A stretch of 50,723 bases of DNA, taken from the NCBI GenBank assembly GCA_022763115.1, contig JALEGJ010000067.1, forward strand, positions 1 through 50,723, given 5' to 3'. Of the stretch, positions 12,887 to 49,839 are shown piece after piece. A program made the position numbers and the translations under genes. This DNA is from Aquisalinus sp. Its GTDB lineage: Bacteria > Pseudomonadota > Alphaproteobacteria > Caulobacterales > Parvularculaceae. Below the pieces are notes generated by a model. That model was given only the letters and a program-made list of their open reading frames with translations, was not told the DNA's origin and ran no database searches. The number at the start of each line of letters is the position of its first letter. The stretch's first letter is position 1.

Positions 12887-13534
12887 CTAGCAGTAGCCAG
12901 CTTTCTTCAAAATCTGGTGTGCCTTGATGACTTCCTGTAGCTGTTCTTCGGCGCCGCGATCCCCGGCATTGGAGTCCGGGTGGAAGCGCTTGACCAGTTC
13001 CGCATAGCGCTTGCGGATATCACCTTCCGGCGCGTTGGTTGGCAGATTAAAGGTCTTGAACGCCTGCACCTGAAGTTTGGTGAGTTTGCGCCCCTCGCGA
13101 TATGCCCCCTCCATGCCGGGCTTGGCCTGAGGGCTCTGGGCAAAAACGCCAATGCTGTCGTCAATGCTCGCCTGCCCATCGACGCCAGCACGGGCCGCGG
13201 CACTGGCGCGGGCATTTTTAGACATCTGCCAGGTTGGCCGACCGCCATAGCGTTGTGATTCCCGAAAAGCCTTGGCTTCTTCATCAGACATACTGGCAAA
13301 GAAGTTCCAGTTCTTATTGTGCTCCCTGGCATGCGTTGGACAAAACCAGAAATATTCGTTCAACTGCTGGGGGGATTTGGGCGCGCGTGACTCGGCTGCG
13401 TTCGTGCAGTCAGGCGCATCGCACTGGCGCACTTCTTTCTTGGCCCAGCTTTTTGCAGCTGTGCGCCCGCCGCGGGATGGTTTTACCCTGATATCGAAGC
13501 CATGACGCGGCTTATAGGAATAATCATCTGACAT
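12887..13534 (-). CDS. J-domain protein (DnaJ-like, C-terminal J domain)
   Basis: This 215-residue protein carries its J domain at the C-terminus (about 150-213, with LPTNAPEGDIRKRYAEL and the H-P-D tripeptide in K-R-F-H-P-D-S-N). An alphaproteobacterial N-terminal part holds a C-D-A-P-D-C cysteine pair near residue 39 and an F-W-F-C-P-T-H segment near 63, which may bind zinc. The J domain would stimulate DnaK ATPase; no substrate-binding domain of DnaJ type is present, so this is a specialised co-chaperone. It is upstream of cobS on the same strand, a conserved pairing. The ATG at 13534 is well placed and begins the usual M-S-D-D-Y-S-Y-K-P-R sequence. Confidence 0.88.
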   Translation of the reverse strand: MSDDYSYKPRHGFDIRVKPSRGGRTAAKSWAKKEVRQCDAPDCTNAAESRAPKSPQQLNEYFWFCPTHAREHNKNWNFFASMSDEEAKAFRESQRYGGRPTWQMSKNARASAAARAGVDGQASIDDSIGVFAQSPQAKPGMEGAYREGRKLTKLQVQAFKTFNLPTNAPEGDIRKRYAELVKRFHPDSNAGDRGAEEQLQEVIKAHQILKKAGYC

Positions 13535-37684: not shown

Positions 37685-38197
37685 ATGGCGCAAAACATGA
37701 AGCGCGGGCGCAATCAGCGCAGAAGAACCGGCTCAAACGTCAACCGGGCATTTGATTCTACCGGGCCTGACGTTAAAATTCGTGGCACAGCCCTGCAGAT
37801 CCACGACAAGTATCAGGCACTGGCTCGTGACGCTGCCTCATCTGGTGACCGTATTCGCGCAGAAAGCCTTTTGCAACATGCTGAGCACTACCATCGTATG
37901 CTGAAGGCAATGCAGCCTCCACAACAGCCACAGCAAAATCAGCAGGATCCGTCAGACGAACCGCAACCTGATGTGGCTGAAAGCAATAACGACAAACAAT
38001 CTGCCTCTTCCGCCGACGACAAACTTCATGAACCAGCTGACAGTACCTCGGAAAATACTTCCGATACAGAAGCCTCACAGGAAGAGGAAAAGACACGTCG
38101 ACCGCGCCGCCGCCGTGCACCACGCAAGACCACTGAAGATTCTGATAGTGCTCAAGAGGAAGCATCTCAGGAAAAGGCTGAAGTTGCCGCAGAATAG
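37685..38197 (+). CDS. DUF4167 family RNA-binding-like protein
   Basis: A 170-residue alphaproteobacterial DUF4167 protein. The N-terminal basic R-G-R-N-Q-R-R-R-T-G-S-N-V-N-R and the conserved G-T-A-L-Q-I-H-D-K-Y-Q-A-L-A-R-D-A ... A-E-S-L-L-Q-H-A-E-H-Y-H-R block (up to about residue 75) define the family. The rest is low-complexity: Gln/Pro runs, an acidic Ser/Glu/Asp stretch and a basic R-R-P-R-R-R-R-A-P segment near residue 140. Such composition suggests nucleic-acid or ribosome association, but function is unknown. Its place after prfA-prmC and before clpB is conserved in the class. Confidence 0.9.
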   Translation: MAQNMKRGRNQRRRTGSNVNRAFDSTGPDVKIRGTALQIHDKYQALARDAASSGDRIRAESLLQHAEHYHRMLKAMQPPQQPQQNQQDPSDEPQPDVAESNNDKQSASSADDKLHEPADSTSENTSDTEASQEEEKTRRPRRRRAPRKTTEDSDSAQEEASQEKAEVAAE

Positions 38198-47285: not shown

Positions 47286-47999
47286 ATGACAAGGGAGCAC
47301 GATCAAATGTATTTCAACGGATTTCCAAAGGACTTCTTCGCGTTTTTTTCCGAATTGGCGGATAATAACGACCGTAGTTGGTTTGAAGAAAACAAGCCCC
47401 GTTACGAGGAAAGCGTGGTCGGTCCCTGCCTGGATTTCATCAGTGCCATGGGACCTGAATTGAAAAAAATTTCGCCGCACTTCACAGCTATCCCCAAAAA
47501 AACCGGCGGCTCGATGTTCCGCATTTACCGCGACACGCGCTTTTCGAAGGACAAGACGCCTTACAAGACCAGTGCGGCCCTGCATTTTCGTCATGCTCTG
47601 GGAAAGGATGCGCATGCCCCCGGATTTTACCTCCATCTGGAACCCGGGCAGGTTTTCTTCGGAGGGGGCATGTGGATGCCGCCCTCTGATGCACTGAAGA
47701 AAATCAGGGGGGCGATTGATGAAGATCAGGCGTCCTGGAAAAAAGTGAAAAGTAACAAGAGGTTGAAGGATACTTTTGGGGCTTTGGCTGAAGGTAATCC
47801 GTTAACGCGTCCACCGAAAGCGTATGCGCAGGATCATCCACTGATAGAAGACCTGAAAAGGCGCAGCTTCTTTGTAATGAGAGACTCCAGCCCGAAATCT
47901 GCCCTGAAGCCTGATTTCATCCGTGAAGTATCGGAAACCTATCGCGCTGCAAGCCCGCTTATGTCATTTTTGTGCAAGGCAACAGGAGCCTCTTTCTGA
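47286..47999 (+). CDS. DUF2461 domain-containing protein (TIGR02453)
   Basis: The 237-residue protein matches the DUF2461/TIGR02453 family: F-x-x-L-A-D-N-N-D-R-S-W-F-E-E-N-K-P-R-Y-E near the start, then M-F-R-I-Y-R-D-T-R-F-S-K-D-K-T-P-Y-K-T and G-F-Y-L-H-L-E-P-G. These conserved blocks are all present and the length is normal. Function is unknown. It leads a plus-strand chain; the coding end overlaps or touches the start of the thioesterase gene. Confidence 0.92.
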   Translation: MTREHDQMYFNGFPKDFFAFFSELADNNDRSWFEENKPRYEESVVGPCLDFISAMGPELKKISPHFTAIPKKTGGSMFRIYRDTRFSKDKTPYKTSAALHFRHALGKDAHAPGFYLHLEPGQVFFGGGMWMPPSDALKKIRGAIDEDQASWKKVKSNKRLKDTFGALAEGNPLTRPPKAYAQDHPLIEDLKRRSFFVMRDSSPKSALKPDFIREVSETYRAASPLMSFLCKATGASF

Positions 48000-48484
48000 C
48001 CTACTTTTCTGAGAAGTATCCGCACCTGACCTGGGATCTGCCGATGCAGCACCTGCATGAGGTCAGAGCTGAGGCGCATCACACGGACATGTTCGGCCAT
48101 GTGAACAACGCCTGGTATGTCGCCTGGGCGATGGATTGCGCCTGGGGGCATTCCGAAGCGCTGGGGCTCGATTTTGCCGCTTATGAGCGCGTGGGTATTG
48201 GCTGCGTTATCCGCGAGCATCGCTACACCTATCTGGCTGCGGCCCATGAGAATGATGACATCATCATCGGTACTGCCATCATCCATAATGATCGCAAGCT
48301 GCGCCTGACCCGCGCCTTCGAGTTACGCCGCGCCGCAGATGACCGGTTGTTGGTGAAAGGCCAGACAGACTTTGTGTCTATTAATATCAAATCCGGACGT
48401 GCGGTGCGAATGCCCGAGGAATATGTACACCTCTATGCATGTGCCAGGCCTGAAAACAGTATCGTGAAAAGCCGGAAATCATGA
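47972..48484 (+). CDS. hotdog-fold acyl-CoA thioesterase (4HBT family)
   Basis: A thioesterase of the YbgC/4HBT type, with D-M-F-G-H-V-N-N-A-W-Y near the start, where the acidic residue and the H-V-N-N block mark the active site, and a C-terminal strand L-V-K-G-Q-T-D-F-V-S-I-N. It should hydrolyse acyl- or aroyl-CoA; substrate unknown. The start is unclear. GTG 47972 would overlap the DUF2461 end by 28 bases and has no good ribosome site. CTG 47996 overlaps the DUF2461 stop (CTGA) and lies 7 bases after AGGAG, and ATG 48044 is just before the conserved region. Its TGA overlaps the next ATG (ATGA), so translation is coupled. Confidence 0.85.
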   Translation: MQGNRSLFLTYFSEKYPHLTWDLPMQHLHEVRAEAHHTDMFGHVNNAWYVAWAMDCAWGHSEALGLDFAAYERVGIGCVIREHRYTYLAAAHENDDIIIGTAIIHNDRKLRLTRAFELRRAADDRLLVKGQTDFVSINIKSGRAVRMPEEYVHLYACARPENSIVKSRKS

Positions 48485-49839
48485 TCGTACATGGCTTGCA
48501 TATTTATCCCCTGAAAAGTGCGCGGGGCGTGACATTGTCTTCATCAGCGGTATCGCCTGCCGGGCTATTCGGTGACCGGCAACTCATGCTGATTGATGAG
48601 CAGGCGTGTTTTCTGACGCAACGAGAGCATCCACAACTCGCGAAAGTTTCGGTGCAGGCGCGTGCAGACGGCTATGAGTTTGCCTTCGGGAACGGCGAGC
48701 CCATTACAACCCCGGTGCCGGATGAAACGCGCCGTGAAGCTGTGCAGGTTTGGCGCTCCACCGTGAATGCAGCTGTCTTTGATGAAACGATAAACAGGCA
48801 CCTGTCGGACTGGCTGGGCAGACCTGCAAGGCTGGTCATGCTCGATGGTCAGTCTGCGCGCAACGCCAATCCTGACTGGGCCGGGCGCGATGCACCGATC
48901 AGCTTTTCCGACGGCTATCCCGTTCTGATAACGACCACAGGCTCGCTCAGGAGCCTGAATGATGACCTTGCGCAGCAAGGCCATCGTCCCGTGCCGATGG
49001 CTCGTTTCCGCCCGAATATCGTCATCGATCATGAAGAGCCCTGGTCCGAGGATTACTGGTCAGCCATAGAAATCAACGGCCTCCGCTTTGATCTGGTGAA
49101 GCCATGCCAGCGCTGTGTGGTGACAACCCAGGACCAGCTTTCCGGAGAGACCGGTCATGGCGATCCGATGCCTGCCTTGCGTCGCTTGCGCATGTCAGCC
49201 GATGCCCGCGTAAAAGGCGTGTTGTTCGGCTGGAATACGGCGCCGCGTGGCACCGGCGAAATTCGGGTTGGTGATCGCGTTAAAATCATCGACAAGAGAG
49301 AAGACGGGTGGCCGCTCAGAGACGTCACGGCGGCACAAAAGGAGAAACAGGAAATGCCTTCATTTGACATCGTTTCCGAGGCTGACCTGAATGAGGTCAA
49401 GAATGCCATCGGCAACGTCATGAGAGAAATCGAAACACGCTATGACTTCAAGGGCTCGCAATCGCGTGTTGAAGAGAAGGATGGCGTGATTACGATCCAT
49501 GCGGACGATGACCTGAAACTGCGTCAGGTGCACGAAATCCTGCAAGGTAACCTGCAGAAGCGCGGGATTGAGCCGGGGATGCTCGACTATCAGAAAGTGG
49601 AACCTGCTGCCGGGCAGTCAGTGCGGCAAAATGTTCTGGTGAAGCAGGGCCTTGATCGTGACCTTGCCAAAAAGATCACCAAGCACATCAAGGACTCCAA
49701 GATGAAGGTGCAGGTTGCCATTCAGGGCGAGGAATTGCGTGTGACGGGCAAGAAACGCGATGATCTGCAAGCTGCCATTTCACTGGTCAAAGAGATGGGC
49801 CTCGATCAGCCGGTCCAGTATAAAAATTTCCGGGATTAG
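48481..49839 (+). CDS. MOSC domain protein fused in frame to YajQ
   Basis: The 452-residue frame joins two proteins usually separate. Residues 1-280 are a MOSC N-terminal beta-barrel plus MOSC domain (Y-P-L-K-S-A-R-G-V-T-L at the start, and the conserved Cys in K-P-C-Q-R-C-V-V-T-T-Q-D). MOSC domains handle sulfur carried on cysteine and molybdenum-cofactor chemistry. Residues 292-452 are a complete 161-residue YajQ (M-P-S-F-D-I-V-S-E at the start, the end block A-I-S-L-V-K-E-M-G-L-D). No stop codon separates them; the 11-residue joint is rich in Lys, Gln and Glu. The YajQ Met is at 49354 and has its own ribosome site, so both a fusion and a free YajQ may be made. Confidence 0.88.
   Translation: MIVHGLHIYPLKSARGVTLSSSAVSPAGLFGDRQLMLIDEQACFLTQREHPQLAKVSVQARADGYEFAFGNGEPITTPVPDETRREAVQVWRSTVNAAVFDETINRHLSDWLGRPARLVMLDGQSARNANPDWAGRDAPISFSDGYPVLITTTGSLRSLNDDLAQQGHRPVPMARFRPNIVIDHEEPWSEDYWSAIEINGLRFDLVKPCQRCVVTTQDQLSGETGHGDPMPALRRLRMSADARVKGVLFGWNTAPRGTGEIRVGDRVKIIDKREDGWPLRDVTAAQKEKQEMPSFDIVSEADLNEVKNAIGNVMREIETRYDFKGSQSRVEEKDGVITIHADDDLKLRQVHEILQGNLQKRGIEPGMLDYQKVEPAAGQSVRQNVLVKQGLDRDLAKKITKHIKDSKMKVQVAIQGEELRVTGKKRDDLQAAISLVKEMGLDQPVQYKNFRD
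49354..49839 (+). CDS. yajQ: YajQ (UPF0234), possible internal initiation
   Basis: Within the MOSC frame, ATG 49354 is preceded by AAGGAG (49339-49344) with a 9-base spacer, and what follows is exactly the usual YajQ length (161 residues) and start (M-P-S-F-D-I-V-S-E). YajQ has two RNP-like ferredoxin folds; family members bind nucleic acid or cyclic di-GMP (Xanthomonas XC_3703 type). Independent translation is inferred from the ribosome site; whether it happens, or whether only the fusion is made, is unknown. Confidence 0.75.
   Translation: MPSFDIVSEADLNEVKNAIGNVMREIETRYDFKGSQSRVEEKDGVITIHADDDLKLRQVHEILQGNLQKRGIEPGMLDYQKVEPAAGQSVRQNVLVKQGLDRDLAKKITKHIKDSKMKVQVAIQGEELRVTGKKRDDLQAAISLVKEMGLDQPVQYKNFRD

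What the first reader, a model, noticed from the sequence alone, without database searches (positions are those of the whole stretch)
48481..49839. MOSC domain reads through without a stop into a complete YajQ
A MOSC protein (291 residues up to the joint) and a full-length YajQ share one uninterrupted frame, yet YajQ keeps its own AAGGAG ribosome site and start. This is either a real fusion with two products from one message, or a lost stop codon. It would link sulfur/molybdenum-cofactor chemistry to a cyclic di-GMP or nucleic-acid binding protein. The joint is short and charged and looks like a linker, which argues against simple sequence error.
Basis: partly seen in the sequence, partly recalled or inferred. 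Interest (0 to 1): 0.75.

Follow-up and report, generated by a model that had tools for sequence, protein, structure and literature searches.

The report
MOSC–YajQ fused frame from stop loss
In one bacterium two neighbouring genes have run together because the stop signal between them is missing, joining a molybdenum-enzyme-type protein to a small nucleotide-binding protein; its close relatives keep the two genes separate, so this looks like a recent, probably real but possibly unimportant accident of evolution.

Summary
In detail: window 48481-49839 is one open frame of 452 codons holding a complete MOSC_N+MOSC protein followed by a complete YajQ. In the three congeners that have both genes side by side they are separate: G001 has TAA-TAG where the window has CAA-AAG, and its yajQ is in another frame; G005 has TGA and TAA in the same frame; G003 has 174 bases between. 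No other genome listed in the searches has a match across both domains without a stop. The fusion is thus a stop loss private to this lineage, known from one draft assembly. Against a single-contig relative this is the only one of 33 matched genes in the window that is fused. The 'charged linker' is not a linker by design: KEKQE is the in-frame reading of YajQ's ribosome-binding region AAGGAGAAACAGGAA. That site is kept and strong, so free YajQ is probably still made, while the genome's only MOSC-domain protein found would be made as MOSC-YajQ. YajQ is 161/161 identical to the unfused sister. A new domain combination, probably real; functional meaning unproven.

The parts
47972..48484 (+). upstream gene (thioesterase-like by eye, no family search); its TGA overlaps the MOSC ATG (ATGA)
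48481..49335 (+). MOSC_N + MOSC protein, 285 codons up to the position where sister G001 has its TAA stop; the conserved MOSC Cys is residue 212 (KPCQRC)
49336..49341 (+). CAA-AAG (Q286-K287), the place of TAA-TAG in sister G001
49336..49353 (+). joint QKEKQE; KEKQE is the reading of the YajQ ribosome-binding region; all six codons are one base from a stop
49339..49344 (+). AAGGAG ribosome-binding site of YajQ; computed duplex -8.9 kcal/mol; unpaired in the centroid fold
49354..49839 (+). complete YajQ (DUF520), 161 aa, own ATG

Best explanation
In this lineage the stop codon(s) between two tightly spaced co-directional genes, a YcbX/mARC-like MOSC gene and yajQ, were lost by point change, with the frames in register, so that ribosomes starting at the MOSC ATG run through into YajQ. 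YajQ's own strong ribosome-binding site and ATG are kept inside the fused frame, so the message most likely gives two products: MOSC-YajQ (about 50 kDa) and free YajQ (about 18 kDa). Free YajQ keeps the ancestral job; the MOSC enzyme now carries YajQ as a passive tail. Shown: fused frame, separate genes in sisters, kept site, kept YajQ sequence, a Moco-synthesis gene in the genome. Inferred: expression, two products, near-neutral tail.
For: Fused frame and both full domains. Separate adjacent genes with stops in G001, G005, G003. Window collinear with G005 2,012,663-2,063,495; of 42 window ORFs 33 match a collinear G005 ORF, 32 to one and only this one to two; of 13 tight same-strand pairs in a gene list I drew up, only this one is fused. 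Internal site -8.9 kcal/mol: 1 of 33 chosen window gene starts and 39 of 1827 ATGs are as strong. YajQ 161/161 identical to G001, third positions 69% identical; private MOSC changes 11 in the window, 22 in G001: no sign of relaxation. MOSC and a MoaA-family domain (PF06463) co-occur: G000, G001, G003, G005 have both, G002 and G004 neither. One place in the genome matches this protein.
Against: One draft assembly (169 contigs), no reads, no second genome of the species. Six consecutive joint codons are each one base from a stop, so a single wrong base or a minority allele could hide a stop. No expression data. In the predicted RNA fold of the window the YajQ ATG is partly paired. Site strength varies widely among congeners (-4.0 in G003 to -12.0 in G002), so the strong site is not a special mark of the fusion.
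Confidence: 0.68

Rival explanations
1. Assembly or sequencing artefact, or a minority strain allele: in the real population a stop stands in the joint and the two proteins are separate as in the sisters.
For: Only one genome shows it; six joint codons are one base from a stop; a draft of 169 contigs.
Against: Two codon differences and a one-base length difference from G001 at the joint; a single-base indel there would not restore the relatives' layout, since the other two frames stop only inside yajQ; no other one-to-two match among 33 matched ORFs of the contig.
Confidence: 0.12
2. Selected bifunctional protein: tethering YajQ to the MOSC reductase has a function, for example nucleotide- or c-di-GMP-responsive placement or control of a Moco enzyme.
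For: Both halves keep sequence constraint; a Moco-synthesis domain and five GGDEF matches in the same genome; the only MOSC domain found in the genome is in this frame.
Against: No fusion in any relative listed; the joint is just the ribosome-binding region; YajQ unchanged from the unfused sister; not all YajQ tested bind c-di-GMP (PMC4199771, passages).
Confidence: 0.12
3. Only free YajQ matters: the read-through product is unstable or little made and MOSC function is being lost.
For: MOSC and the MoaA-family domain are both absent in two congeners, so the system is dispensable in the group.
Against: Window MOSC keeps the conserved Cys and the ATGA-overlapped start and has fewer private changes than its sister.
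Confidence: 0.08

Closest known systems
YcbX/mARC-type MOSC proteins (MOSC_N + MOSC)
   Same: Same two domains and conserved Cys; aligned to human mARC1 chains
   Different: No ferredoxin or FAD family matched at the C terminus; YajQ there instead. The 2023 mARC review (PMC10637980, passages only) names ferredoxin, FAD-binding, 3-alpha, NifS, MoaB and XdhC partners; YajQ is not among those in the passages seen
YajQ / DUF520 (1in0, 8k4i, 5b7w XC_3703)
   Same: Full-length match over residues 292-452, E 3e-43 to 3e-37
   Different: Here also the tail of a MOSC protein; separate genes in the congeners
Separate adjacent MOSC and yajQ genes in the same genus (G001, G003, G005)
   Same: MOSC directly before yajQ on the same strand in all three; in G001 and G005 also the same two genes before MOSC as in the window
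   Different: Stops between MOSC and yajQ; G003 lacks the thioesterase-like gene before MOSC in the stretch read

Membership tests
MOSC superfamily, YcbX/mARC-like (MOSC_N + MOSC) | Pfam MOSC and MOSC_N above curated cut-offs | tested here: met
   74.1 and 66.5 bits
MOSC superfamily, YcbX/mARC-like (MOSC_N + MOSC) | the single universally conserved Cys (Cys273 in mARC1 per PMC10637980, passages) | tested here: met
   C212 aligned to a Cys of mARC1 and invariant in three MOSC rows; that this is Cys273 rests on conservation here and on my recall of mARC1 numbering
MOSC superfamily, YcbX/mARC-like (MOSC_N + MOSC) | C-terminal ferredoxin domain typical of YcbX | tested here: not met
   no such family matched; residues 293-451 are DUF520. 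So it is mARC/YcbX-like, not a typical YcbX
MOSC superfamily, YcbX/mARC-like (MOSC_N + MOSC) | Moco-dependent N-reductase activity | not testable with these tools
   PF06463 match in the genome; activity needs an assay
YajQ (DUF520) | Pfam/NCBIfam match over the full length | tested here: met
   211 and 214 bits
YajQ (DUF520) | cyclic di-GMP binding | not testable with these tools
   reported for XC_3703, PA4395 and Smlt4090; E. coli, Clostridium and B. cereus proteins preferred ATP and/or GTP (PMC4199771, passages)
Established multidomain family MOSC-YajQ | same architecture in more than one species | tested here: not met
   only the window's genome among those listed (one search list cut)

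The most novel reading that the evidence does not exclude
A molybdenum N-reductase tethered to YajQ by recent stop loss, so that one message gives a MOSC-YajQ enzyme and free YajQ, with the YajQ tail giving the enzyme nucleotide-dependent control or location: a natural experiment in the birth of a bifunctional protein, with the unfused state preserved in sister species.
Probability: 0.13. Interest if true: 0.6.

Novelty: new variant of a known kind. Interest (0 to 1): 0.33.

Why it matters
Domain fusions are often used to infer functional links. Here the fusion can be placed on one lineage, its molecular cause read off, and the old ribosome-binding site seen turned into coding sequence. If expressed, it is a neat case of a fused gene that keeps a second product. 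If not selected, it warns against reading a link from one fused gene. A partner enzyme for YajQ would be useful only if the fusion proves functional.

Tried and rejected
Tried: (a) Other long open frames upstream of yajQ as independent fusions: nine yajQ stretches fetched, a hand-picked part of those listed; eight gave a yajQ start in my script, G707 gave none. G787, G652, G645, G360 and G612 have long open upstream frames that look like off-frame reading of other genes (judged by eye from composition, no family search); in G677, G184 and G276 a stop lies 3-12 residues before yajQ (for G677 the search had listed a 274-aa frame, which I did not reconcile). (b) AlphaFold: single sequence, mean pLDDT 40.3; with 16 rows 60.5, pTM 0.35: YajQ blocks 67-89 falling to 63 and 38 at the end, MOSC_N partly and MOSC poorly modelled, residues 274-290 below 50. 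This agrees with a floppy joint but is too weak to judge domain contacts; no fold search was run. In its alignment A3 the short G001 MOSC row was partly misplaced (73% against 77% identity). (c) Alignment A1 was misaligned and not used. (d) RNA structure: no unusual fold in the window (z -0.07); in the minimum-energy fold one G of the site and part of the ATG are paired, in the centroid the site is free; the three stretches folded are not in the same register, so they are not compared. (e) Literature: 'MOSC' with 'YajQ' as whole words, 0 papers in the held open library; the 7 papers matched word beginnings only. (f) MOSC-yajQ as a wider conserved pair: adjacent in 4 of 6 genus genomes (the window fused); in the other family genomes for which both halves are listed they are on different contigs or far apart. 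(g) The one search list was cut, and a fusion with a very different MOSC could show only as a YajQ match with a long open frame, so distant fusions are not excluded.

Full report
The observation. Window 48481-49839 reads as one ATG-started frame of 452 residues. Residues 3-115 match MOSC_N, 139-268 MOSC and 293-451 DUF520/YajQ, all over the curated cut-offs, and NCBIfam calls the end a YajQ equivalog. Against solved structures the YajQ part matches 1in0, 8k4i and 5b7w over its whole length, and the MOSC part matches human mARC1 chains. The MOSC ATG overlaps the stop of the gene before it (ATGA).

What the relatives show. The window is contig C160 of a 3.03 Mb, 169-contig genome with a single match for this protein. 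Six genomes of its genus are held, its own included. In the named scan, L039 has the contig length of G001:C98 (15,292; Aquisalinus sp. CC_bin13) and L042 that of G003:C6 (997,524; Parvularculaceae bacterium OFTM378), which places the window near Aquisalinus, family Parvularculaceae. In G001, G003 and G005 the MOSC and yajQ genes are neighbours but separate; G002 and G004 have yajQ without MOSC. G001, the closest of the three by these genes, reads TAA-TAG where the window reads CAA-AAG, and is one base longer between there and the yajQ ATG, so its yajQ lies in another frame. G005 has TGA and TAA in the same frame. G003 has 174 bases between stop and start. A stop is thus the common state, and its loss is most simply derived in the window's lineage.

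How rare. A match across both domains without a stop was seen only in the window's own genome: 1 of 61, 1 of 6 genus, 1 of 62 family, 1 of 299 order, 1 of 385 class, 1 of 398 phylum genomes. These sets overlap, and genomes with any match numbered 38, 6, 57, 73, 113 and 252 (E limits 0.001 for the first three, 1e-20 for the rest); the match list was cut. The named scan gave 39 loci; two of them, L039 and L042, match across both halves, and these are the separate genes of G001 and G003; that scan reaches close relatives only and may leave out the window's own record.

Is it an error? Against the single-contig relative G005 the window is collinear. Of 42 window ORFs picked by a simple length rule, 33 have a collinear G005 partner by protein comparison, 32 to one and one, this one, to two; of the other 9, eight matched by translated search. 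One gene (12887-13534) is shorter than its partner, 215 against 310 aa, which may be a matter of start choice. Among 13 tightly spaced same-strand pairs in a gene list I drew up from those calls, this is the only fused one. Single-base indels in the joint would not restore the sisters' arrangement, since the other frames stop only inside yajQ. Still, each of the six joint codons is one base from a stop, and without reads an erroneous base or a mixed population cannot be excluded.

The joint. It is the translation of yajQ's own ribosome-binding region: AAG GAG AAA CAG GAA gives KEKQE. Computed against a recalled 16S tail, the site is -8.9 kcal/mol, against -7.3 in G001, -7.4 in G005, -4.0 in G003, -12.0 in G002 and -8.7 in G004; it is stronger than 32 of 33 chosen gene starts in the window, and 39 of 1827 ATGs are as strong or stronger. 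It is unpaired in the centroid fold, though part of the ATG is paired. So an inner start at YajQ is likely. Ribosomes leaving MOSC no longer stop before it, so any coupling by termination is lost and direct initiation must supply free YajQ (inference).

Constraint. YajQ is 161 of 161 identical to the unfused G001 although third codon positions are only 69% identical; the MOSC part has 11 private changes against 22 in G001, with G005 as outgroup. Neither half shows decay. MOSC and a MoaA-family domain are found together in four of six genus genomes and both missing in the other two, which fits a working Moco enzyme. The genome also has five GGDEF matches, so c-di-GMP may be present, but YajQ proteins differ in what they bind (PMC4199771, passages seen).

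Reading. Most likely a genuine, recent stop loss that makes the only MOSC-domain protein found in this genome a MOSC-YajQ fusion while free YajQ continues from its own start; the tail is probably tolerated rather than selected. The mARC review names several MOSC fusion partners (ferredoxin, FAD-binding, NifS, 3-alpha, MoaB, XdhC), not YajQ, in the passages I saw (PMC10637980), and no paper in the held open library has both whole words MOSC and YajQ. The combination is new to what I could search, but it is a one-lineage event of a well-known kind.

Noticed in passing
G002, G004 (L034, L035) against G000, G001, G003, G005: MOSC and MoaA-family domains are present or absent together within the genus; in G002 and G004 the thioesterase-like gene and yajQ lie next to each other on one strand with no MOSC between them.
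   Followed up: partly
window 48481-49335; G906, G713: The MOSC part is closer to MOSC of another family of the class (55 and 53% identity) than to MOSC listed in the other genera of its own family (40-47%), hinting at horizontal gain of this copy; no tree was made.
   Followed up: no
G001, L039:3001-3855: The MOSC motif is KPSDRC in G001 but KPCQRC or KPCDRC in the window, G005 and G003: the first Cys is not conserved, the second is.
   Followed up: no
window 12887-13534: ORF of 215 aa matches residues 96-310 of a 310-aa ORF in G005; start choice or a shortened N terminus.
   Followed up: no
window 37685-38197: Gene with conserved N-terminal half and a fast-changing, charged, low-complexity C-terminal half compared with G005.
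   Followed up: partly
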